Assembly: GCA_017519865.1 (NCBI GenBank)
Contig: JAFWRQ010000032.1
Location: 40,226-104,225 of the forward strand
From: Bacteroidales bacterium
Lineage (GTDB): Bacteria; Bacteroidota; Bacteroidia; Bacteroidales; UBA932
DNA length: 64,000 nucleotides
Direction of reading: 5' to 3'
Positions 21,270 to 34,019 of this stretch are shown one piece after another. Under the pieces are notes generated by a model, which was not told the DNA's origin, did not search any database, and saw only the letters and a program-made list of their open reading frames with translations. Within the stretch, counting starts at the first letter, position 1, and each line of letters begins with the position of its first letter. Position numbers and translations under genes: made by a program.

Positions 21270-22220
21270 TTAGTCAAGCGATTGGCCTGTACGTGAGGCC
21301 ATGAGTTCCATAGCGGCATACTCCTCCGGGGTCACGCCGGCGAAGAAGCAGTCGACGGGATTGAGATACTCTCCGTCCTTGATGAGTTCGAAGTGCAGGT
21401 GCGGGGCGAAGGAATTGCCGGAGATGCCCACGGAGGCGATCCTGCGGCCGCGCTGGACACGCTGCCCTCTCGACACCTTGATGTCCGCCAGATGCGCGTA
21501 GCGGGTGACATATCCGCCGGGATGGGTGATCTCGACGACGTTGCCCAGGCCCTTGCGCTCGTGGATGATGTCCGTCACCGTACCGTCGGCCACGGCCAGG
21601 ACGGGATCTCCCTGCGGAGCTATAAGGTCGACGCCGTTGTGGGAGGTCTCCACCTTATAGAAGGGGTTGACCTTCTGGCCGACTGAAGCCCCGACCTGCG
21701 CGAAGGATATGGAATCCAGCGGCAGCGACATCGGCGGTAGGGCGCGGTCTTCGGAGGCAATGAGACTCAATGCCTTGAGGAAATTGTCCTCGATGCGGGC
21801 GGCGGTCTTTTCAGCGCCCTGGACCTTGCCGTATACATACTCCACCATCTCGCTGTCGGGGACGGTGTCGGCAGCTGCCAGATAATCGTCGGAGATAAGG
21901 GCATCAAGATGGGGCGCACGGGCATGGAAGATCTCCTCGTAGATCTGGTCGTCCTTGACCTCCAGACCGTCGATCACATCCGAAAGGAGCTGCTCGCGCG
22001 CGAGCATATCCTGATAGGTACGCTCGTAGAGCCTGTTTTCGCGGATGAGCCTGCGCTCGGAGTCGGTATTTACGACCAGGGCGAACACGATATAGTAGAA
22101 CACCGCGAGCGAAACCGTGGCAACCGCGTACTTCAGGATGCTCTTCAGCACGTTCCACACGGTACGGGTGGAGCGCCGGAAACGGAGGTTCCTGTCGATT
22201 ATGTACTGTTCCCTGCTCAT
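21270..22220 (-). CDS. Membrane-anchored M23 peptidase, second of pair
   Basis: A 316-residue protein with a single N-terminal transmembrane helix (about residues 30-52), a periplasmic coiled region and a C-terminal LytM domain. The zinc ligands are present: HNGVDLIAP (H and D) and HLHFEL (HxH). The enzyme family cleaves peptidoglycan cross-bridges, or acts as an amidase activator when degenerate; here the site is intact. Its ATG overlaps the stop of the preceding M23 gene (ATGA), so the two are co-translated and may act together. Confidence 0.88.
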   Translation of the reverse strand: MSREQYIIDRNLRFRRSTRTVWNVLKSILKYAVATVSLAVFYYIVFALVVNTDSERRLIRENRLYERTYQDMLAREQLLSDVIDGLEVKDDQIYEEIFHARAPHLDALISDDYLAAADTVPDSEMVEYVYGKVQGAEKTAARIEDNFLKALSLIASEDRALPPMSLPLDSISFAQVGASVGQKVNPFYKVETSHNGVDLIAPQGDPVLAVADGTVTDIIHERKGLGNVVEITHPGGYVTRYAHLADIKVSRGQRVQRGRRIASVGISGNSFAPHLHFELIKDGEYLNPVDCFFAGVTPEEYAAMELMASRTGQSLD

Positions 22221-23227
22221 CTCCTCCTGGTTCTGAAGGACTGCTGGAGCAGTTCCTTGCTTTCATCTCCGCGCTTGCGGACCATTTCTGCATATTCCTT
22301 GACAGGCATGTCCATGTCAAGGTAGTTCATGGGATTCACCCTTTCTCCGCGATAGATCACCTCATAGTGCAGATGGGGGCCGGTGGACTTGCCGGAGTTG
22401 CCGCTCTCGCCTATGCAGTCCCCCCGCTTGAGTTTCATGCCTTCGGCGACGCTGACCATGCTCATGTGGGCGTAGCGCGTCTTGTATCCGAAGCCGTGAT
22501 CGATCAGTATTTCGTTGCCGTAGCCAGTGAAGCTGAACTTCACGTACTCCACCACGCCGTCGCCGGTAGTATACACCGGTGTACCGGGCTTCATGGCGAA
22601 GTCCTGGCCGTCGTGATACCTGGTCTCTCCGGACATCGGGTCCGAACGGTACCCGAAGGGGCTGGAAAGCGTATACTTCCCTTTTTCAGGGCTGAAGGGA
22701 GGGATGGCGGGGATGCACGAAGCCATGTCCCCCGCCCTTTTCGACATTGTAGCGACCTCGTCGAAAGACTTGCTCTGGACGTAAGTTTCCTTGGTCAGCC
22801 TGTCGAGGCGCTCTGAGGTGCATACAAGGGGGCCGCCGGGCTGGGCGTCGGCAAGGTAGTCGTAACGGTTGAGGCCGCCGATCCCGGACTTGCGCAGCTC
22901 GTCCGGGATCTCGTTCATGCCGAAGATGGAACGGTAGATGTCGTCGTTACGGGTCTCCAAGGCCTTAAGAGTTGTCTCGTAACTGTCCAGGCGACGGTTG
23001 AGTACCTCCATGCGCGAGACCCAGCGGGCATTCTCCAGCTTCAGGATTGCGAGCTTGGGAGATTCGTTGCCAAGGACGGAAGTATAAAGGAAGAAATACA
23101 GCAGGGCAAGGGCCACGCTGCCGAGGAACACGAGGGTTGCCTTGGCAAAAATGGTCCTCTTGGAGACTTCCCTCAACTCGTACATCAGGGTTTCGGGATT
23201 GAGGCTGTACTTCCTGAACTTGGACAT
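22217..23227 (-). CDS. Membrane-anchored M23 peptidase, first of pair
   Basis: A 336-residue protein with a transmembrane helix at about residues 28-50, a coiled-coil linker and a C-terminal LytM/M23 domain. The zinc-binding motifs YHDGQDFA and GPHLHYEV are intact. It is paralogous to the downstream gene, with which it overlaps by 4 bp. It is the first gene of an M23-M23-MerR run that diverges from alaS. A minus-strand TATATTTG box lies directly upstream, leaving almost no leader. The likely role is peptidoglycan remodelling at the cytoplasmic membrane. Confidence 0.88.
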   Translation of the reverse strand: MSKFRKYSLNPETLMYELREVSKRTIFAKATLVFLGSVALALLYFFLYTSVLGNESPKLAILKLENARWVSRMEVLNRRLDSYETTLKALETRNDDIYRSIFGMNEIPDELRKSGIGGLNRYDYLADAQPGGPLVCTSERLDRLTKETYVQSKSFDEVATMSKRAGDMASCIPAIPPFSPEKGKYTLSSPFGYRSDPMSGETRYHDGQDFAMKPGTPVYTTGDGVVEYVKFSFTGYGNEILIDHGFGYKTRYAHMSMVSVAEGMKLKRGDCIGESGNSGKSTGPHLHYEVIYRGERVNPMNYLDMDMPVKEYAEMVRKRGDESKELLQQSFRTRRR

Positions 23228-23295: not shown

Positions 23296-25917
23296 ATGAT
23301 GACTTCCAAAGAGATCAGGCAGAAATTCCTGGATTATTTCGCATCCAAAGGACATACGGTCGTCCCTTCGGCTCCCATGGTAGTGAAGAACGACCCCACC
23401 CTCATGTTCACCAACGCCGGCATGAACCAGTTCAAGGATATCTTCCTCGGCAATACCAAGTCCAAGTTCAACCGCGCCGTCGATTCGCAGAAGTGCCTGC
23501 GCGTCAGCGGCAAGCACAACGACCTCGAAGAGGTGGGCCACGACACGTACCACCATACCATGTTCGAGATGCTCGGAAACTGGAGTTTCGGAGACTACTT
23601 CAAGGCCGAGGCCATCGACTGGGCCTGGGAACTCCTCACCGAGGTCTATGGCATAGACCCCAAGGAGCTGTACGCCACCGTATTCGAAGGCTCCGCCGAT
23701 GACGGTACCGAGATGGACCTCGAGGCAAAGCAGGCATGGCTCAAGCATCTGCCTGAGGACCACATCGTCCTCGGCAACAAACACGACAATTTCTGGGAGA
23801 TGGGCGACACCGGCCCCTGCGGCCCCTGCAGCGAGATACACATCGACATCCGCTCCGCCGAGGAGCGCGCCTCCGGCATCTCTGGACGCGACCTCGTCAA
23901 CAAGAGCGACCCCCATGTAATCGAGATATGGAACCTCGTTTTCATGGAGTTCCAGCGCCTCTCCGATGGCCACCTCGAGCCGCTCCCGGCCAAGAACATC
24001 GATACCGGAATGGGCTTCGAGCGCCTCTGCGCCGTCCTCCAGGGCAAGAATTCCAACTATGATTCCGACGTGTTCGGCGGCATGCTCGCAAAGATAGGCG
24101 AACTCTCCGGACACAGATACGGCGAGTCGCACGACACTGACGTCGCCATGCGCGTCATCGCCGACCATATCCGCGCCATCAGTTTCTCGATTGCCGACGG
24201 CCAACTGCCGTCCAACGTCAAGGCCGGCTACGTGATCCGCAGGATCCTGCGCCGCGCCGTCCGCTACGGCTATACCTTCCTCGGCCTGTCCGAGCCCTTC
24301 CTCTGCCGTCTGGTGCAGCAGCTCGTGGACGACATGGGTGAAGCCTATCCCGAGATCAAGGCCCAGCAGAAACTCATAGAAAACGTCATCCGCGAGGAGG
24401 AACTCGCATTCCTGCGCACCCTCGACCGCGGCATCAAGCTCCTGAACGACTACATGGCCGCCGACGCCGGCTCCAAGGTCCTGGGCGGAGTCAACGCTTT
24501 CACCCTCTACGACACCTACGGATTCCCCATCGACCTCACCCAGCTCATCGCTGCAGAGAAAGGATTCACCGTCGACATGGATGGTTTCCAGGAGGAGCTC
24601 CGCAAGCAGAAGGAGCGCGCCCGCAACGCCACCGCCAACACTTTCGGCGACTGGGTCGAGTATCACGGAGGAGAGGAAGTCGAGTTCGTCGGGTTCGACA
24701 CCACCGAGGTCGAAGGCGCCCAGCTGCTCAAGCAGCGCACTGTCGTTCAGAAGAACAAGGAGATGCTCCAGCTCGTCTTCGACCGCACGCCGTTCTACGG
24801 CGAGATGGGAGGCGAGATCGGAGATACCGGATACATCGAGGCCGAAGACGGAGAGCAGATACGCATCCTCAACACCGTCAAGGAAAACAACCTCACGATC
24901 CATATTGCCGAGAGGCTGCCGAAAGACTGCACCGCAGATTTCAAACTTGTAGTCGACGGTGCCCGCAGGCAACGAATCGCGAACAACCACAGTTGCACGC
25001 ACCTTATGCACCGCGCCTTGAGGGAGATCCTCGGCACGCACGTGGAGCAGAAAGGTTCGTACGTTTCCGACAAGGGTTTCCGCTTCGATTTCTCACATTT
25101 CGAAAAACTTTCCGACGAGCAGATAGCGCAGGTTGAGCATCGCGTCAATGAACTGATCCGCAGCAACTTCCCGCTGTCGGAGAACCGCTCCGCGACCATG
25201 GATGAGGCCCGTGAGATGGGCGCCATGGCCCTGTTCGGCGAGAAGTACGGAGACCGCGTGCGCGTGGTCAGGTTCGGACCCAGCGTCGAGCTCTGCGGCG
25301 GATGCCACACTTCCGCCACGGGCAACATCGGTTTCTTCAAGATTGTCAGCGAGTCTGCGATCGCCGCCGGCATCCGCCGCATCGAAGCCGTAACCGGCGA
25401 AGAGGCGGAGGCTTTCGTGGCCGGCATCCAGGGCATGCTCAGGACTGCCAGGGCATTCTTCAACAATGTCCCTGACCTTGCAGGGGCCATCTCCAAGCTC
25501 ATAGAGGACAACGCTTCGTTCAAGAAGCAGGCCGAGGAGTTCTCCCGCCAGAAGGCGGCCGACCTCGCCCGCAAGCTCACCGAGAACGCCAGCGAGGTCA
25601 ACGGTATCAGATTGATCGTCGTCCAGCACGACATCGATCCCGCCTTGCTGCGCAACGCAGCCCTGACGCTCCAGAAGGAGCTCAAGGGCGCTGCGCTCGC
25701 CGCCGCCTACGAGCATGACGGCAAGCCCCAGCTCCTGCTGATGTATTCCGACGACCTCGTCGCCGCCGGGCACAACGCCGGCAAGGAGATCCGCGAGGCC
25801 GCCAGGTTCATCCAGGGCGGAGGCGGCGGACAGCCCGTCCTCGCCACCGCAGGCGGCAAGGACGCTTCAGGCCTAGCCGCCGCGCTCGACGCCCTCAAGG
25901 ACATTGCCACAAGATAA
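23296..25917 (+). CDS. alaS: Alanine-tRNA ligase
   Basis: An 873-residue protein, the normal AlaRS length. The class II catalytic domain opens with [20 protein letters not shown] and has [15 protein letters not shown] as motif 2 region. The editing domain carries the zinc motif HSCTH (H565, H569) and CGGCH (C667, H671). The C-terminal C-Ala domain ends with the GGGGGQP glycine-rich signature. It charges tRNA-Ala and edits mischarged Ser and Gly. The start MMTSKEIRQ could be either adjacent Met; the first is used. It is followed after 24 bp by the LptF/G-Fmt fusion gene. Confidence 0.97.
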
Positions 25918-25941: not shown

Positions 25942-28431
25942 ATGAGACGACTGGACAGGTTCATACTCAAATCCTTCATAGGACCGTTCCTGGCGATCCT
26001 CCTGGTCGTCATGTTCATACTGGTGATGCAGTTCCTGTGGGTCTATATCGACGAACTGGTCAACAAGGGCCTGTCCTTCAGCGTCATCCTCGAGTTCCTG
26101 ATGTGGGGAGGATGTACGATCCTGCCCCTGGCCATGCCTCTCGCCACACTGCTTGCATCGATGTGGACCATAGGGCAGATGAGCGAGAACAACGAGCTCA
26201 TCGCCGTCAAGAGCGCGGGCATTTCGCTCGTGAGGATCATGTCTCCGCTGTTCGTAGCCTCCGCGATCATCAGCGTCCTGGCTTTCTATTCGGCCAATGA
26301 CCTGGTACCGATCGCTTACGACAAGATCTACACCCTCCGCGACGACATCAACAAGACAAAGGACGAGATCAAGATCCCTTCCGGCATCTTCTATGACGGC
26401 ATCGAGGGGTACGTACTGCGCGTGGACGGCCGCAACGACGACACCGGAATGATGTACGGGGTGATGGTCTATGACCATACCGGCAACAAAGGCAACACCA
26501 GCGTCACCCTGGCCGACTCGGCATATATGAAGATGTCCTCCACCAAGGAGTATCTGGCCTTCACGATGTACAACGGCACCAACTACCAGGAGACCAACAC
26601 CAGGCAGTACCGCGACACGACCCTTGAACTTCAAAAACTCTTCTTCGAAAGGCAGGAACTCATCATCCCGCTCGAGAACTATTCCTTCGAAAAGTCCGAC
26701 AGCACCAGGTTCAGCGACCAGATCAAGTCAATGAACCTCGAGGACCTGAGCAGTTTCCGCGACACGATGCACACGAAGTTCGACAATGCCTATGACACTC
26801 AGATGAAGTTCCTCAACTCTGCCATAGGCATGGCCCGGATGAACCAGCTCGACACCTCGGTGCGACGCAAGAATCTCCGGAACTTCGATGATGAGGACTT
26901 CCTGCAATGGGATGACATCAACGAGAAGATAGCCGCCTATTCGATGGCGGCAGACAAGGCCAGCTCTGTCGAGAATGAATTGAAGAGCATGAACCGCGAC
27001 GTTTATGAGTACCAGTTCTACATACGCCGCGCCGACCTGGAGATCATGCGCCGTTTCGTACAGGCCCTGGCCTGCCTCATCCTGTTCTTTATCGGAGCCC
27101 CCCTGGGCTCGTTCGTACGGAAAGGCGGACTGGGTACGGCCGCCATCATCGCCGTCCTGTTCTTCGTCCTCTACTGGGTCGTGGACCTGACGGGCACCAA
27201 GCTCGCAAAGGACGGCGCCGTATCGCCGGCCAACGGGGCTCTCATTCCGTTGTATGTGCTGGTCCCGATAGGGACATTCCTCCTTTGGAAGGCTGCGCAC
27301 GACAGTGCGTTCAACACCGACCAGCTCAAGTCCACCTGGAGGAAGATTAAGTCCCGGATAACGGGATTCTTCAAGAAGACGCGCATCGTATATATGGGCA
27401 CTCCGGAGTTCGCCGTGGCGCCGCTCGATGCCCTCATCGCCCATGGATACAAGATCGCCGGCGTCGTAACGGTGGCCGACAAGCCTTCTGGCCGCGGGCT
27501 CAAGGTGAACGAGAGCGCCGTCAAGAAATATGCGGTGGAGCATGGCATACCGGTCCTTCAGCCGGTCAAGCTAAAGGATCCGGAATTCCTGGATGCCCTT
27601 CGCGCCCTGAAGGCCGATATCTTCGTGGTGGTGGCTTTCCGCATGCTACCGGAGGAAGTCTGGTCTATGCCTAAGCTCGGCACGTTCAACCTTCACGCCG
27701 CACTTCTTCCGCAGTACCGCGGCGCCGCTCCCATCAACTGGGCGGTAATCAATGGAGAAAGGGTGACGGGAGTGACCACGTTCATGATCGACCACGACAT
27801 CGACACCGGAGGCATCATCCTCCGCGAGGAGTGCCACATCAACGACACGGACAACGCCGGAGACGTACACGACAAGCTGATGGCGCTCGGCTCCGGCCTG
27901 GTCGTGGAGACTGTCGAAGGCCTGATCCAGGGCAATGCCGAACTGCGCGTCCAGAGGTCCTTCATCCAGGGCTCGGAAGTCCTTAAGCCTGCCCCGAAAC
28001 TTACCCGTGAGCTCTGCCACATCGACTGGAACGACACTACGGAGAGTATCTACAACCTGGTCAGGGGCCTCAGCCCCTACCCTGCAGCCTTCACGGAGCT
28101 CATCCCGGTCCCGCAGCAGGTGTCCGACGGAGAAGCCGTAAAGCCCGTCCAGATGAAGATCTACAGGGCGGAGCGTATGAGCGCGGCGGACGTCGCCGCC
28201 CTCGGCGGCACCCATTCCGCAGTCTCGCCCGCCCCGGGCACCGTCCTGTCGGACGGCAAGTCGCTCCTGGCGGTCGCCACCGCCGACGGCGCCCTGCGCA
28301 TCACCGAGCTTCAGCTCGCCGGCAAGAAGCGGATGGACGTCGGCTCCTTCCTCCTCGGATTCCGCGAGCCGCAGTCCTACGTCTGCACCCCCGGCACCTC
28401 CAAGGCCGTCCTCACCTCCGTCCGTCCTTAA
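25942..28431 (+). CDS. LptF/LptG-family permease fused to methionyl-tRNA formyltransferase
   Basis: One uninterrupted 829-codon frame with two unrelated proteins. Residues 1-~475 are a YjgP/YjgQ (LptF/G) permease: N-terminal helices (12-35, 55-78, 100-118), a periplasmic beta/coiled region (~150-365) and C-terminal helices (~370-448). The family works in lipopolysaccharide export. Residues ~477-829 are a full Fmt: RIVYMGTPEFAV at the start, the formyl-folate site N583/H585 in NLHAALLPQYRGAAP, D621 in IDTGG, and a C-terminal tRNA-binding domain. Fmt formylates initiator Met-tRNA. Between residues 440 and 484 there is no ATG, GTG or TTG codon in frame. The only nearby ATG (residue 485) would remove the first Fmt strand. 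A true fusion is therefore favoured, placing Fmt at the inner face of the membrane. Confidence 0.88.
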   Translation: MRRLDRFILKSFIGPFLAILLVVMFILVMQFLWVYIDELVNKGLSFSVILEFLMWGGCTILPLAMPLATLLASMWTIGQMSENNELIAVKSAGISLVRIMSPLFVASAIISVLAFYSANDLVPIAYDKIYTLRDDINKTKDEIKIPSGIFYDGIEGYVLRVDGRNDDTGMMYGVMVYDHTGNKGNTSVTLADSAYMKMSSTKEYLAFTMYNGTNYQETNTRQYRDTTLELQKLFFERQELIIPLENYSFEKSDSTRFSDQIKSMNLEDLSSFRDTMHTKFDNAYDTQMKFLNSAIGMARMNQLDTSVRRKNLRNFDDEDFLQWDDINEKIAAYSMAADKASSVENELKSMNRDVYEYQFYIRRADLEIMRRFVQALACLILFFIGAPLGSFVRKGGLGTAAIIAVLFFVLYWVVDLTGTKLAKDGAVSPANGALIPLYVLVPIGTFLLWKAAHDSAFNTDQLKSTWRKIKSRITGFFKKTRIVYMGTPEFAVAPLDALIAHGYKIAGVVTVADKPSGRGLKVNESAVKKYAVEHGIPVLQPVKLKDPEFLDALRALKADIFVVVAFRMLPEEVWSMPKLGTFNLHAALLPQYRGAAPINWAVINGERVTGVTTFMIDHDIDTGGIILREECHINDTDNAGDVHDKLMALGSGLVVETVEGLIQGNAELRVQRSFIQGSEVLKPAPKLTRELCHIDWNDTTESIYNLVRGLSPYPAAFTELIPVPQQVSDGEAVKPVQMKIYRAERMSAADVAALGGTHSAVSPAPGTVLSDGKSLLAVATADGALRITELQLAGKKRMDVGSFLLGFREPQSYVCTPGTSKAVLTSVRP

Positions 28432-28595: not shown

Positions 28596-29549
28596 ATGGC
28601 TGATACTATGAAACGCATCTTCAAGGAGGGCATGCCTCATCATGTCTATTGCAAAGGAGTCAACGGTTACATCATCTTCTACTCCATTGCTGACTGCGTG
28701 TTCTGCATCACCTTGTATTCCTGTCTGTCGAGGAAGCACAGAATAACGATCGGTGCATTCTCAATAATGCCCAACCACATTCATTCACAACAGAACGCCC
28801 CCAGCCGGAAATCATTCATCGCTTTTAACCGTGAGTTCCTGATTCTCTTCAGCCAAGGATACAATAAGCAGCACAAACGATGTGGGAAACTTTTCCAAAC
28901 GCCTTTCGGAAGTGCGCCGAAGATGGTTGAGAAAACCATAAAGAGCAATCTCTCATACATCAACAACAACGCCCCGGCCGGAAGACTGTCTGAAGGAGTA
29001 CTGGATTATCGCTGGAATCTGATGGCTTATTATTTCAGCAGCCATCCTTTTTCCGAGCCGATCGTTCTCAATCGAGCATCACACAAGATGAGAGAAGCCA
29101 TACGCTTCGTAGACAGGTGTCGTCAAGAGAACAAGCCGTTGGATTACAGACTGCAGTCCATGCTGTTCAAAGGGCTCAGAAGCAAGGAAAGGAAACAGTT
29201 GCTCGATTATATTGTAGCCAAGTATAACTTCCTGGACTATAATTCCATACTTCAGCATTACCAGTCAATGGAAGATGCCTTGATGGCAATGGATGCAAAT
29301 ACCGGGTCGGAACACGATATCAAGGAGGACTGGGAAGACTATTCCGTATACAAGACTATGATAGAAAAGGCCTCAAACTCCGGCATAGACATGGGAACCA
29401 TCAACTTCGAGACCCTCGGAAAAGACGACTTGTTCAACCTTGTCAAAGTTCTCAGCGAAGCCACCAGTGAAAAGAGGAAGATCTTCCGCTTCCTCCACTT
29501 GGATTTGCCATCTATTACAAAGGCCGAAGGAACTGAATATAGTAAATGA
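28596..29549 (+). CDS. HUH/Y1 transposase of the REP-associated (RAYT) type
   Basis: A 317-residue protein with the HUH motif in SIMPNHIHS (H61-I-H63). A candidate catalytic tyrosine Y89 lies in SQGYNKQHKR, followed by CGKLFQ, which resembles the GxLFQ motif of RAYT proteins. The start (ATG at 28596 or 28608) follows EGMPHHVYCKGVNG, like the family opening. These enzymes nick and join single-stranded DNA at hairpins. The C-terminal 200 residues are not recognised. The gene looks less GC-rich than its neighbours and sits between two homologous 110-nt flanks, signs of mobility. The residues after HIH differ from the usual hydrophobic run, so activity is uncertain. Confidence 0.75.
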   Translation: MADTMKRIFKEGMPHHVYCKGVNGYIIFYSIADCVFCITLYSCLSRKHRITIGAFSIMPNHIHSQQNAPSRKSFIAFNREFLILFSQGYNKQHKRCGKLFQTPFGSAPKMVEKTIKSNLSYINNNAPAGRLSEGVLDYRWNLMAYYFSSHPFSEPIVLNRASHKMREAIRFVDRCRQENKPLDYRLQSMLFKGLRSKERKQLLDYIVAKYNFLDYNSILQHYQSMEDALMAMDANTGSEHDIKEDWEDYSVYKTMIEKASNSGIDMGTINFETLGKDDLFNLVKVLSEATSEKRKIFRFLHLDLPSITKAEGTEYSK

Positions 29550-29763: not shown

Positions 29764-31107
29764 CTAGAGGGTTTCCTGCTTGAGGGCTTCGACGTAGGTG
29801 TCGATGCGGCGGAGTTCCTGGGGGATGCGTATGCCCTGCGGGCAGCGAGGCACGCAGGAGTTGCAGGATATGCAGTGGTCTGCCTGCCGGACGCTGTCGA
29901 TGGCCTTGTCGTAAGAGGTCAGGTAGGCCCTCTTCAGTTTCCTGAAGTTCTTCTGGTCTGTACTCTGGGCGATCATCCCTTCATTCACGCTGCCGTTGTA
30001 ATGCTTGAAGATGGACGGGATATCGATGCCGTAAGGGCAAGGCATGCAATACTGGCAGCTGGTACACGGTACCAGCGGGTAGTCGCTGATCAGCCCGGCC
30101 ATTTCCTCCAGGAACTCGAGTTCCTCATCGGTGAGGGGCTTGAAATGTTCGAAAGTGGCGACATTGTCCTGGAGGTGCTCCATATAGGTCATACCGCTGA
30201 GTGCGGTGAGCACTCCGGGCATGGTGCCGCAGAAGCGGAACGCCCACGATGCGACTGAGCGCGAAGGCTCCCTTTCCTTGAACTGTTCGGCGACAGGGAC
30301 AGGCACGTCGCTCAGGCGGCCACCGAGAAGCGGTTCCATGATGACCACGGGGATGCCCCTGGCCACCAGCTCATCGTAAGCGTATTTCGCGCTGTAATTG
30401 CCGTGGGTCCAGTCGACATAGTTCATCTGGATCTGGCAGAAATCCCAATGGTACGTGTCGTGAAGGGCGAGGAGTTCGTCCAGGCCGCTCTCCGAGCCAT
30501 GGAAAGAGAATCCAAGGTTACGGATGCGGCCCTCGGCACGCTCCCTAAGCAGGAAATCCATCAGGCCGTTATCCAGGAAACGCTGTTTGAACGCAGCCAG
30601 GCCGGCGATATTGTGCAACAGATAATAGTCGATATGGTCGGTGTCGTAGAAGCCGAGCGACCGTCTGTACATCGCCACACCCTCCTCGTACGTCGGCTCG
30701 AAACCGCGGTGGTTGGAGAGTTTGGTGGCTATGTAGTAACTGTTGCGGGGATGGCGGCTCAAGGCCTTGGCCGTAGCCGCCTCGCTCTGCCCCTGCAGAT
30801 ACACCGGCGCGGAGTCGAAATAGTTTACACCGTGCTCTATCGCGTAATCCACCATCTCGTTGACCTTCTCCTGGTCGATGACTTCATTGCCGGCTTCATC
30901 CCTGACCATAGGCCAGCGCATGCAGCCGTAACCGAGGAGCGAAACCTTGTCGCCGGTGTTGGGATTGGTGCGCAGGGGCATCGCCTCGGACACCTCTACG
31001 CCCTTTCCCTTCTTGTCGGAGCCCGGCTTGCACGCTGCGGCCACAGCGCCCAAAGCAAGCGCGCCGGCGCCGACTTTGATGAAATCTCTTCTGGAAATGT
31101 CTTTCAT
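29764..31107 (-). CDS. Tat-exported aldo-keto reductase with ferredoxin tail, copy 1
   Basis: A 447-residue protein. The N terminus carries a twin-arginine signal (ISRRDFIKVGAGALALGA) followed by an AAAC that could be a lipobox (C26). The aldo-keto reductase barrel retains the tetrad D98, Y103, K129 and H165. The C-terminal ~90 residues hold two cysteine clusters, CTSCQYCMPCPYG and CISCNSCVPRCPQG, expected to bind two [4Fe-4S] clusters. Tat export suggests cofactors inserted before transport. It is the last of a three-gene run with a paralogue and a membrane polyferredoxin, which could feed it electrons outside the cytoplasm. The substrate is unknown. Confidence 0.85.
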   Translation of the reverse strand: MKDISRRDFIKVGAGALALGAVAAACKPGSDKKGKGVEVSEAMPLRTNPNTGDKVSLLGYGCMRWPMVRDEAGNEVIDQEKVNEMVDYAIEHGVNYFDSAPVYLQGQSEAATAKALSRHPRNSYYIATKLSNHRGFEPTYEEGVAMYRRSLGFYDTDHIDYYLLHNIAGLAAFKQRFLDNGLMDFLLRERAEGRIRNLGFSFHGSESGLDELLALHDTYHWDFCQIQMNYVDWTHGNYSAKYAYDELVARGIPVVIMEPLLGGRLSDVPVPVAEQFKEREPSRSVASWAFRFCGTMPGVLTALSGMTYMEHLQDNVATFEHFKPLTDEELEFLEEMAGLISDYPLVPCTSCQYCMPCPYGIDIPSIFKHYNGSVNEGMIAQSTDQKNFRKLKRAYLTSYDKAIDSVRQADHCISCNSCVPRCPQGIRIPQELRRIDTYVEALKQETL

Positions 31108-31117
31108 GGTCTTCGGG

Positions 31118-32458
31118 CTACAGGGTCTCCTGCTTGAGCGACTCTACGTATTGGTCTATGCGACGGAGTTCCTGGGGTATTCGGATGTGCTGGGGGCAAT
31201 GGGGAGAACACTGGTTGCAGGAGATGCAGTGGTCGGCCTGACGGACAGTCTCGATGGCTTTGTCGTAGGTCGTCAGATAGATCTTCTTCAGTTTCTTGAA
31301 ATCCTTCTGGTCAGTACTCTGGGCGATGTAGCCGTCGTTCACGCAGCTGTTGTAATGCTTGAAAATGGTAGGGATGTCTATGCCGTAGGGGCAAGGCATG
31401 CAATACTGGCAGTTGGTGCAGTCGATGAGCGGGTAGTTCTTGATGAGGCCCGCCGCTTCCTTGAGGAAGTCCATCTCCTCGTCCGTAAGGGGCTTGAAAT
31501 TCAGGAATGTCTTGAGATTGTCCTGAAGATGCTCCATATACGTCATTCCGCTCAGGGCGGTGAGAACGCGGGGCTTGGAACCGCAGAAGCGGAACGCCCA
31601 CGACGCGACGGAAGCGTCGGGCTCGCGCTCCTTGAACTGGTCCGCAACGACCTTCGGTACGCTGCTGAGGCGCCCGCCGAGGAGAGGCTCCATGATCACC
31701 ACAGGGATCCCCCTCTTGTCCAGTTCGTTATAAAGGTACTCGGCATCGCCGTCATACCAGTCGACGTAGTTCATCTGGATCTGGCAGAAGTCGAAATGGT
31801 ACTTCTCGTGATAGGTCATGACCTCGTCGAAGCCGGAGCGGCTCGGATGTACCGAGAGGCCGAGATTGCGGATGCAGCCGGCCTCGCGCTCCCGCACGAG
31901 GAAATCCATCATGCCGTTGTCCACCGCACGGCGGCGCCAGTCGTTCCCGTCGCGGACGATATGGATCAGATAATAGTCGATGTAGTCGGTCTGGAGATTC
32001 TTGAAGGAGTCGCGGTACATCTGCACCGAACGCTCGAAGGAAGGGTCTCCGGACTGGTTGGAAAGCTTGGTCGCAAGGTAATAGCTGTTGCGGGGATGGC
32101 GTGAAAGGGCGATGCCCGCAGCGGCCTCGGACTGGCCCTGAAGATAGACCGGAGACGTATCGAAATAGTTGACCCCGTTGGCCAGGGCATAGTCCACCAG
32201 TTCATTGACGGAGTCCTGGTCGACTATCTGCCTACCGTCAGGTCCTTGTATCATCTGCCAGCGCATACAGCCGTATCCGAGGATGGATACCTTGTCGCCG
32301 GTGTTGGGGTTGGTACGCAGGGGCATGCCTTCGGAAATACCCGCTGCCGGATCGGACCGCCTGCCCGAGCCGGGCTTGCAGGCGGCGGCAGTACCGAGCG
32401 CGAGAGCACCCGCGCCGGCCGCCTTGATGAAATCCCTTCTGGAAATATCCTTACCCAT
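31118..32458 (-). CDS. Tat-exported aldo-keto reductase with ferredoxin tail, copy 2
   Basis: A 446-residue protein from the ATG at 32458, 4 bp after the polyferredoxin stop; an upstream in-frame Met would lie inside that gene and precede the Tat signal oddly. It has a Tat motif (ISRRDFIKAAGAGALALG), a possible acylated C27, an AKR barrel with FDTSPVYLQG, and a ferredoxin tail CTNCQYCMPCPYG plus CISCNQCSPHCPQH. It is a paralogue of the next gene, 10 bp downstream, diverged but colinear. Together they look like two isoenzymes of one extracytoplasmic redox system. Confidence 0.85.
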   Translation of the reverse strand: MGKDISRRDFIKAAGAGALALGTAAACKPGSGRRSDPAAGISEGMPLRTNPNTGDKVSILGYGCMRWQMIQGPDGRQIVDQDSVNELVDYALANGVNYFDTSPVYLQGQSEAAAGIALSRHPRNSYYLATKLSNQSGDPSFERSVQMYRDSFKNLQTDYIDYYLIHIVRDGNDWRRRAVDNGMMDFLVREREAGCIRNLGLSVHPSRSGFDEVMTYHEKYHFDFCQIQMNYVDWYDGDAEYLYNELDKRGIPVVIMEPLLGGRLSSVPKVVADQFKEREPDASVASWAFRFCGSKPRVLTALSGMTYMEHLQDNLKTFLNFKPLTDEEMDFLKEAAGLIKNYPLIDCTNCQYCMPCPYGIDIPTIFKHYNSCVNDGYIAQSTDQKDFKKLKKIYLTTYDKAIETVRQADHCISCNQCSPHCPQHIRIPQELRRIDQYVESLKQETL

Positions 32459-32462
32459 GGCC

Positions 32463-34019
32463 CTACTCTTTAATGTGTGCAACAAGGCCCTCTACGTGGA
32501 TGGCGCTGATCGGGCGCGAAGGACAGAGGTACTCGCACTTTCCGCAGCCGATGCAACGGTCTTCGATGACGCTCGGGATGAGCGGCGACTGGCGGTTGCC
32601 CTGCTCCTTGCGGACCATCGAGATGGCGCCGGCCGGACAGCCGGAGGCGCACTTGCCGCAACTGGCCTCGCCCTTGGCCGAGACACAAAGGTCGTAGTCG
32701 ACGACCGCGCGGCCAATATGGACCATCGTCTTCTCCTCCCTAGTGATGGGAAGGATGGCGCCGGCCGGACAAACCTGCGAGCAGTTGGTACACTCAGGAC
32801 GGCAGTATCCACGGTCGAAATCCATCTTGGGCTGCATCAGGTGACCGGGATCGGTGCTCGGACGCAGGACATTGTTGGGACAGTTGGCGACGCACAGCTG
32901 GCAGGCCGTGCAATGCTTGTAGAAATGCTTGGCGCTGACAGCTCCCGGAGGGACAAGGCGCTGTTCGCGCTTCGGAGCCTTCTTGGGAAGGATGGCAGCC
33001 AGGCCGCCGTCGGTCTTCTCGCCCTCCTGGGCGTGAAGCAGGGCGGCAGATCCCGCCATCAGGGCTCCCAGCATGAACGCGCGCTTGCCGGCATCCGGAG
33101 CCTCTTCCGACGCATTTCCAGCCGGAGCGGCGGGCGCCTCCGCCGGAGCGGCGGGCTCAGCCGGAGCCGGTGTCGCGGCAGGGGCAGGAACGGCCTTGGC
33201 CTTCTTCGGACCATAGGCGAAGCGATAATCGAGAGCGCCTTCCGAGCATTGCTGCACGCACTCGAAGCAGACTACGCAGCGGGAGCAGTCGACCTTGTGG
33301 GCTTCACCGTCGATACAGGAAGCCTTGCAGTTCTTGTAGCACTTGCCGCAGGCTACACATTTGCTCTCGTCGATGGTTATGCGGAAGAGAGAGAAGCGCG
33401 AGATAAAACTGAGCGTGGTACCCACCGGGCAGATGTTGTTGCACCAGGAGCGTCCGTCAGTCCAGGCCAGATAGGTAACGCATGCCAGGGTGAGGAAAGC
33501 CACGAGAGGCACGATCCAGCCGTTGGGGTGGACGATACTGGTGACGATACGCCCGTAAGCGCTGTAAGGCGCGAGGAGGGCTACCAGGACCTGGATGCCG
33601 AGCACGAGGCAGAGCACGAAAACGGCCCAGACACCATACCGGAGCAGTTTGTGCTCGGGCTTGTAACCGAAATTCTTGCCGATACGGCGTTCAAGTTTGG
33701 GTACGGGCTTGCCCGCAGCCTTGGCCTTGGCGGCCCTGCGGGCAAAGCGTTTCATCTGAAGTTTCCCGAGGGTGCGGCGTACCCAAAGGACGAGGTCCTG
33801 GTACACGCCGAGCGGGCAGATGACGGAGCAGTAGGTGCGTCCGCAGACAAAGGTCAGCAGCACCAGCGCGACTATTACTGCGACGTTGAGGGCGAGGCAG
33901 GCGGGAAGGAACTGGAGCTTTGCCATCCAGCCCCACCATTGCTGTCCGATACCGACGAGGAGCAGGGTGATACCGACGAAGAATACGGTCGCAAGCGCGA
34001 TTCTGGTTTTCTTCAGCAT
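32463..34019 (-). CDS. Membrane polyferredoxin, NapH-like plus NapG-like
   Basis: A 518-residue protein. Residues 1-~210 have four transmembrane helices (about 8-25, 40-58, 127-150, 168-186) with NapH/CcoG-like CGRTYCSVICP and SWCNNICPVG motifs. Two ferredoxin motifs follow (CVACGKCYKNC, CSRCVVCFECVQQC). After a Pro/Ala-rich linker (276-303) comes a hydrophobic stretch preceded by Lys-Arg (311-331) and then four more clusters (CTACQLCVANCP, CRPECTNCSQVCP, CGKCASGCP, CIGCGKCEYLCP). It resembles a NapH unit fused to an exported NapG-like ferredoxin. It is first in the operon with two Tat-exported AKRs, so it probably moves electrons across or along the membrane to them. Confidence 0.85.
   Translation of the reverse strand: MLKKTRIALATVFFVGITLLLVGIGQQWWGWMAKLQFLPACLALNVAVIVALVLLTFVCGRTYCSVICPLGVYQDLVLWVRRTLGKLQMKRFARRAAKAKAAGKPVPKLERRIGKNFGYKPEHKLLRYGVWAVFVLCLVLGIQVLVALLAPYSAYGRIVTSIVHPNGWIVPLVAFLTLACVTYLAWTDGRSWCNNICPVGTTLSFISRFSLFRITIDESKCVACGKCYKNCKASCIDGEAHKVDCSRCVVCFECVQQCSEGALDYRFAYGPKKAKAVPAPAATPAPAEPAAPAEAPAAPAGNASEEAPDAGKRAFMLGALMAGSAALLHAQEGEKTDGGLAAILPKKAPKREQRLVPPGAVSAKHFYKHCTACQLCVANCPNNVLRPSTDPGHLMQPKMDFDRGYCRPECTNCSQVCPAGAILPITREEKTMVHIGRAVVDYDLCVSAKGEASCGKCASGCPAGAISMVRKEQGNRQSPLIPSVIEDRCIGCGKCEYLCPSRPISAIHVEGLVAHIKE

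What the first reader, a model, noticed from the sequence alone, without database searches (positions are those of the whole stretch)
25942..28431. LptF/G permease and Fmt fused in one polypeptide
A lipopolysaccharide-export permease and the initiator-tRNA formyltransferase are one continuous frame. The sequence shows both domains complete with active-site residues (Fmt N583, H585, D621). It also shows no ATG/GTG/TTG between residues 440 and 484, so independent translation of Fmt is hard to explain. The inference is that start-tRNA formylation is tethered at the inner membrane, or that gene neighbours merged by loss of stop and start. I know of no described protein of this type.
Basis: partly seen in the sequence, partly recalled or inferred. 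Interest (0 to 1): 0.75.

Follow-up and report, generated by a model that had tools for sequence, protein, structure and literature searches.

The report
LPS-export permease fused to Met-tRNA formyltransferase
In a group of gut bacteria, the enzyme that formylates the protein-starting tRNA is encoded as one continuous protein with a membrane component of the lipopolysaccharide exporter, a combination that seems to have formed, or been undone, more than once in this bacterial family.

Summary
The fusion is real. Window 25942-28431 (+) is one 829-codon frame: LptF/G permease (6-450), ~30-residue linker, Fmt (481-807). Fmt catalytic residues are intact and codons 440-484 hold no ATG/GTG/TTG. It is the only Fmt found in the 75%-complete assembly.

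It is not an assembly error: 33 of 37 genomes of the genus (probably Candidatus Cryptobacteroides) have both halves in one frame. The linker is under purifying selection (dN/dS about 0.30). Seven other genera of the family have it; unfused members mostly have tandem, usually overlapping lptF-fmt. No fusion was seen outside the family in the order and phylum samples. Fused rows are not one clade (p-AU 1.7e-5 and 2.7e-4): repeated fusion, or fusion plus splits.

Best reading: overlapping, translationally coupled neighbours merged into one bifunctional chain, tethering formylation to the exporter's cytoplasmic side. Activity, lack of cleavage and any advantage are untested. Many relatives, not the window, keep an in-frame ATG that could also make free Fmt. 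Structure prediction never ran.

The parts
23296..25917 (+). alaS, alanyl-tRNA synthetase, 24 nt upstream of the fusion gene; upstream neighbour in much of the family
   Evidence: PF01411, PF07973, PF02272
25942..28431 (+). LptF-Fmt fusion gene, 829 aa
25957..27291 (+). LptF/LptG permease domain (residues 6-450), six hydrophobic clusters
27292..27381 (+). Linker (residues 451-480), basic, of the length and kind of the LptF C-terminal tail of unfused relatives; no ATG/GTG/TTG
27382..28362 (+). Methionyl-tRNA formyltransferase (Formyl_trans_N 481-657, Formyl_trans_C 686-807); N583, H585, D621, R518 present

Best explanation
A genuine bifunctional membrane protein. An LptF-type permease of the LPS exporter and Met-tRNA formyltransferase are translated as one chain, with Fmt hanging on the cytoplasmic side from the permease's C-terminal tail. 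In ancestors within this family lptF and fmt lay in tandem, overlapping by a few to a few tens of bases in different frames. Such overlaps couple translation, and the fmt frame is often already open upstream of its start, so one indel in the LptF tail could put both genes in one frame. This happened more than once, or once with later splits. Both activities are kept; formylation is made 1:1 with the permease and is tethered to the inner membrane as a by-product, with no advantage needed to explain it. Shown: the fusion, its spread, its constraint, and the tandem state of relatives. Inferred: a single-chain product, both activities, the indel route, absence of cleavage.
For: One frame with both whole domains. 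Only Fmt found in the assembly, beside a separate second LptF/G permease and two peptide deformylases. Both halves in one frame in 33 of 37 genus genomes and in 13 of 46 genomes from 24 other genera of the family (G105 not counted because one search shows two frames). In 80 more genomes of the family sample Fmt lies in a frame of 648 aa or more in 54 of 80. Of the 150 rows listed (hand count; listing cut) 146 have frames over 800 aa; of the four shorter ones three are cut at contig ends and one has a break inside LptF. dN/dS over 32 pairs that share no ORF: 0.24 LptF, 0.30 linker, 0.155 Fmt. N583/H585/D621/R518 in 133 of 133 distinct fused ORFs. Tandem, mostly overlapping lptF-fmt in unfused members. 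Overlaps couple translation: PMC10666635 (abstract and outline seen).
Against: No transcript, peptide or activity data. 76 of 120 distinct genus-level ORFs have an in-frame ATG 2-16 codons before M485, so some relatives may also make free Fmt. Structure prediction could not be run. G367, a 95%-complete genome of the genus, gave neither half. G235, of an otherwise fused genus (16 of 17), has Fmt in a 293-aa frame (not followed up). The trees do not tell gain from loss of fusion, and they disagree on which fused genera group together.
Confidence: 0.78

Rival explanations
1. Two products from one frame: the fusion is made, but free Fmt is also released, by internal initiation in the linker or by proteolysis of the basic linker, and the free form does most of the formylation.
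For: An in-frame ATG sits 11 codons before M485 in 61 of 120 distinct genus-level ORFs and 9 before it in 15; such a start would give an ordinary-looking Fmt N-terminus. A further 19 of 120 have only GTG/TTG there. The linker is rich in basic residues.
Against: 25 of 120, the window among them, have no ATG/GTG/TTG 2-16 codons before M485, and 7 of 120 have none in the whole linker; of 13 ORFs from other genera 5 have none near, 7 only GTG/TTG and 1 an ATG. Starting at M485 would remove most of the first beta strand and should break the fold (inference, structure recalled). Proteolysis is untested.
Confidence: 0.2
2. Selected membrane tethering: formylation is placed at the inner membrane, or tied to LPS-exporter abundance, because this helps translation of membrane proteins or couples envelope growth to protein synthesis.
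For: The fused state is found in 8 genera of one family and no clear split was seen in the window's genus. A single clade of fused rows is rejected, as repeated selection would predict. The C-terminal side is cytoplasmic by topology.
Against: The overlapping tandem state alone predicts recurrent fusion, and loss of the separate start makes it hard to undo. Trees are equally compatible with one fusion and later splits. The linker resembles the tail already present in unfused LptF; its amphipathic signal is weak (median shuffle p 0.062, 48 of 120 under 0.05) and also seen in some unfused tails. No functional data.
Confidence: 0.15
3. A sequencing or assembly error removed a stop and a start in this assembly.
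For: The window comes from an incomplete assembly (75%, 37 contigs).
Against: The same open junction is found in 133 distinct ORFs from other assemblies, 0 of 133 with a stop in frame; the distance from residue 452 to M485 is 33-35 codons in 120 of 120 genus-level ORFs.
Confidence: 0.01

Closest known systems
Methionyl-tRNA formyltransferase, Fmt (TIGR00460; E. coli 1fmt/2fmt)
   Same: N- and C-terminal domains, catalytic residues, score over the equivalog cut-off.
   Different: Fmt is otherwise a free protein of about 315 residues; here it is the C-terminal part of a membrane protein.
LptF/LptG permease of the LPS exporter LptB2FG (PF03739)
   Same: Whole Pfam profile matched; six hydrophobic clusters.
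   Different: Carries a C-terminal enzyme of about 350 residues; below the NCBIfam LptF and LptG cut-offs (157.4 of 230 and 120.4 of 240), so F versus G is not settled by that test.
Tandem lptF-fmt pair of unfused family members (e.g. G121, G071, G200)
   Same: Same two genes, same order and strand; alaS upstream in G121 and G071 (the piece of G200 is too short to tell).
   Different: Two frames with the lptF stop and fmt start kept; in 21 pairs, overlaps of 1-41 nt (16) or gaps of 5-17 nt (5).
ArnA, a Fmt-like domain fused to a dehydrogenase (PDB 1z7e)
   Same: A Fmt-like domain in a bifunctional protein connected with LPS (hits; function recalled).
   Different: ArnA acts on a sugar nucleotide (recalled); here the domain passes the Fmt cut-off and reaches only 146.8 of 777 bits on the ArnA model.

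Membership tests
Fmt (methionyl-tRNA formyltransferase) | Equivalog profile score over cut-off | tested here: met
   TIGR00460 237.9 bits against 201.5
Fmt (methionyl-tRNA formyltransferase) | Catalytic Asn, His, Asp and the C-terminal domain | tested here: met
   N583/H585/D621 aligned with 1fmt, kept in 133 of 133 fused ORFs; PF02911 at 686-807. Roles recalled.
Fmt (methionyl-tRNA formyltransferase) | Formylates initiator Met-tRNA | not testable with these tools
   Indirect only: sole Fmt found in the assembly; two deformylase loci
LptF/LptG permease | PF03739 over gathering score, full length | tested here: met
   241.5 bits, profile 1-353 of 353
LptF/LptG permease | NCBIfam LptF or LptG equivalog cut-off | tested here: not met
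   TIGR04407 157.4 of 230; TIGR04408 120.4 of 240; hence 'LptF-type' only
LptF/LptG permease | A second permease partner in the genome | tested here: met
   One other PF03739 locus, 362 aa
LptF/LptG permease | Works with LptB, LptC, LptA, LptD | not tested
   Partners other than the second permease were not searched for
ArnA-type sugar formyltransferase | ArnA model over cut-off, dehydrogenase domain present | tested here: not met
   146.8 of 777 bits over the formyltransferase part; no dehydrogenase domain among the Pfam hits

The most novel reading that the evidence does not exclude
Initiator-tRNA formylation in a whole genus of gut Bacteroidales is obligately membrane-bound and fixed 1:1 to the LPS exporter, and the arrangement has been selected repeatedly because it couples translation initiation to envelope biogenesis.
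Probability: 0.13. Interest if true: 0.88.

Novelty: new variant of a known kind. Interest (0 to 1): 0.6.

Why it matters
Fmt formylates the initiator tRNA used for each new protein; in this lineage the only copy found is covalently part of an inner-membrane transporter. That makes a question testable that is hard to test elsewhere: does it matter where in the cell start-tRNA is formylated? The family also holds the steps side by side (apart, tandem, overlapping, fused), a natural series for studying how translationally coupled neighbours become one protein and whether this can be undone. One of the two functions will be missed if such genes are named after a single domain.

Tried and rejected
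Rejected: (1) Assembly or base error: the same open junction in 133 distinct ORFs. (2) A second, free fmt in the assembly: the other two formyltransferase loci pass the PurN and PurU cut-offs. (3) Fusion in another family: G050 (f15) looked fused (open frame 821 aa) but is a tandem pair with a stop and a 24-nt gap. G105 (g28) looked joined but has stops between the halves. (4) One origin without reversal: rejected by AU tests (p 1.7e-5 for AlaS+LptF+Fmt; 2.7e-4 for AlaS alone). (5) A specially evolved membrane-binding linker: the amphipathic signal is weak and also present in some unfused LptF tails.

Led nowhere: structure prediction (nine requests, each answered 'machine busy'), so fold and domain packing are untested. 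Literature: searches pairing Fmt with LptF or LPS export, Cryptobacteroides with gene fusion or with Fmt, and the two Pfam names gave 0 papers each. 'Methionyl-tRNA formyltransferase' with 'gene fusion' gave 6 and a five-term search 1, none about this by title and abstract start. One open-access library only; no domain-architecture database was at hand.

Limits: one search listed only its best rows (150 by hand count). Searches used strict E-value limits, met by 87 of 393 and 14 of 395 genomes; the rest say little, and a fusion with strongly diverged halves would be missed. 'Genus-level ORFs' (120) are all distinct fused ORFs from loci up to L143; 80 of those loci are named records without a genus code. 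The 32 pairs share no ORF but are not corrected for relatedness. Left out of the 39-row tree: G104 (broken lptF frame), G048 and G056 (one half only); the 21-row trees hold only rows with at least 600 residues of AlaS.

Full report
OBSERVATION. The window holds one open frame, 25942-28431 (+), 829 aa. Pfam finds a complete LptF_LptG domain (6-450), then Formyl_trans_N (481-657) and Formyl_trans_C (686-807). NCBIfam scores the second half above the fmt equivalog cut-off (237.9 against 201.5 bits) and the first half below the LptF (157.4 of 230) and LptG (120.4 of 240) cut-offs, so I call it LptF-type. Alignment with E. coli Fmt (1fmt) places N583, H585 and D621 on its N.H and DTG positions (catalytic roles recalled). 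Codons 440-484 hold no ATG/GTG/TTG; the next is M485 inside YMGTPEF.

IS IT THE ONLY FMT? The assembly (2.1 Mb, 37 contigs, 75% complete) has three Formyl_trans_N loci. The other two pass the PurN (197 against 150.1) and PurU (376.2 against 285.95) cut-offs. A second LptF/G permease of 362 aa lies on another contig, and two peptide deformylase loci are present. In one search the genomes listed with an Fmt match (E <= 1e-40) have one each, except G175 and G241, of other genera, with two.

SPREAD IN THE GENUS. One search covered 61 genomes with the whole protein. Of 37 in the window's genus (own included) 33 carry both halves in one frame. Of the other four, G025 has a break inside LptF but an open junction, G010 and G004 give fragments, and G014 gives neither half. 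In one search (398 genomes of the family, Fmt half as query) 376 had a match. The listing shows 150 rows (hand count), all of this genus, 146 with frames over 800 aa. The four others were followed up: G423, G404 and G362 are cut at contig ends and G437 has a break inside LptF. One 95%-complete member, G367, gave neither half. The genus is probably Candidatus Cryptobacteroides: 5 of the 80 named records kept bear that name; most others say only Bacteroidales or Bacteroidia bacterium (NCBI lineage).

OTHER GENERA OF THE FAMILY. Of 46 genomes from 24 other genera 13 are fused, in 7 genera (g26, g27, g29, g30, g39, g40, g41). G105 was listed as joined but has stops between the halves. In 80 more genomes of the same family sample (80 of the 107 I had meant to test) Fmt lies in a frame of at least 648 aa in 15 of 15 of g30, 16 of 17 of g39 (G235: 293 aa, not followed up), 23 of 23 of g40, 0 of 23 of g28, 0 of 1 of g26 and 0 of 1 of g36. 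g26 is mixed: G061 fused, G086 and G104 separate.

OUTSIDE THE FAMILY. Of 149 genomes of the order, 143 had Fmt; the 3 family members among them are fused, the other 140 have Fmt in frames of at most 397 aa. Of 148 genomes of the phylum, 147 had Fmt, and apart from the window none sits in a frame over 523 aa. Two larger samples with the whole protein gave matches joining both halves only in the family: 4 of 393 order genomes and 1 (the window's own) of 395 phylum genomes. With the strict E-value limits used there, only 87 and 14 genomes had any listed match.

ANCESTRAL ARRANGEMENT. I compared 21 unfused tandem pairs of the family, taking the most upstream ATG/GTG/TTG listed as fmt start: 16 overlap (1 to 41 nt), 5 have gaps of 5-17 nt, and in 20 of 21 the genes are in different frames. 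alaS was found upstream on the same strand in 15 of the 21 stretches, directly adjacent in 12; in 6 it was not in the stretch fetched. In g31 and g32 the genes are about 1.2 kb apart, in families f8 and f24 about 3.6-3.7 kb; in g33, g44 and g48 the halves lie on different contigs. G050, of family f15, has a tandem pair too. The linker of the fused proteins is about as long as the LptF tail of most unfused tandem relatives, so it looks inherited. Because the fmt frame is in several relatives open well upstream of its start (e.g. G078, G200, G109), one frame-changing indel in the LptF tail could join the genes (inference). Short overlaps couple translation and are common in prokaryotes (PMC10666635; abstract and outline seen).

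HOW OFTEN? A careful tree of AlaS+LptF+Fmt (21 rows) needs three changes between fused and separate, and 0% of 200 bootstrap trees need only one; holding the fused rows together is rejected (p-AU 1.7e-5). AlaS alone, not part of the fusion, needs four changes and also rejects (p-AU 2.7e-4). A quick 39-row LptF+Fmt tree needs three. The trees disagree on details: g39 and g40 group with g27 and g29, but with g1 and g41. So there were two or more fusions, or one fusion with later splits; direction is not settled.

ONE PROTEIN? In 133 distinct fused ORFs (of 154 loci with a fused frame, among 171 loci scanned) the junction has no stop in the fusion frame, against 117 and 76 with a stop in the other forward frames. 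Over 32 close pairs sharing no ORF, dN/dS is 0.24 in LptF, 0.30 in the linker and 0.155 in Fmt. Catalytic residues are kept in 133 of 133. Against an exclusive single product: of 120 distinct genus-level ORFs 76 have an ATG 2-16 codons before M485 (61 of the 120 at -11, 15 at -9), 19 have only GTG/TTG there, and 25, with the window, have none; 7 have none in the whole linker. Of 13 ORFs from other genera 1 has an ATG there, 7 only GTG/TTG, 5 none. An internal start is possible in many species but is not general.

WHERE DOES FMT SIT? Hydropathy windows form six clusters (about 4-41, 43-78, 86-122, 366-394, 391-422, 430-452, merged by eye), with basic residues at the N-terminus and after the last cluster. 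An even number of passes with basic ends puts both termini in the cytoplasm (positive-inside rule and LptF topology, recalled), the side where Met-tRNA is. An amphipathic tendency of the linker is weak (median shuffle p 0.062; 48 of 120 under 0.05).

JUDGEMENT. A real, conserved bifunctional gene, not found described in the searches made, best explained as a merger of translationally coupled neighbours with both functions kept. A selected role for membrane tethering is possible but not shown.

Noticed in passing
window 29764-31107 (-) and 31118-32485 (-): Two adjacent proteins, each with an aldo/keto reductase domain, 4Fe-4S matches and a TAT-signal match; perhaps a tandem duplication.
   Followed up: no
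window 28596-29549 (+): 317-aa ORF downstream of the fusion with no Pfam match at E 0.001, but a motif IMPNHIH as in REP-associated tyrosine transposases (motif recalled).
   Followed up: partly
window 21270-22220 (-) and 22217-23227 (-): Two M23 peptidase genes in tandem whose ends overlap by 4 nt, divergent from alaS.
   Followed up: no
L174:1897-4341 (G050): A genome of another Bacteroidales family has lptF and fmt in tandem in the same frame, 24 nt apart, not fused: the tandem state is not confined to the window's family.
   Followed up: partly
G437 and G025 (loci L256, L265, L257, L264); L223 (G104): Frame breaks inside the LptF part; in G437 and G025 the LptF-Fmt junction stays open. Sequencing error or real decay, not told apart.
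   Followed up: no
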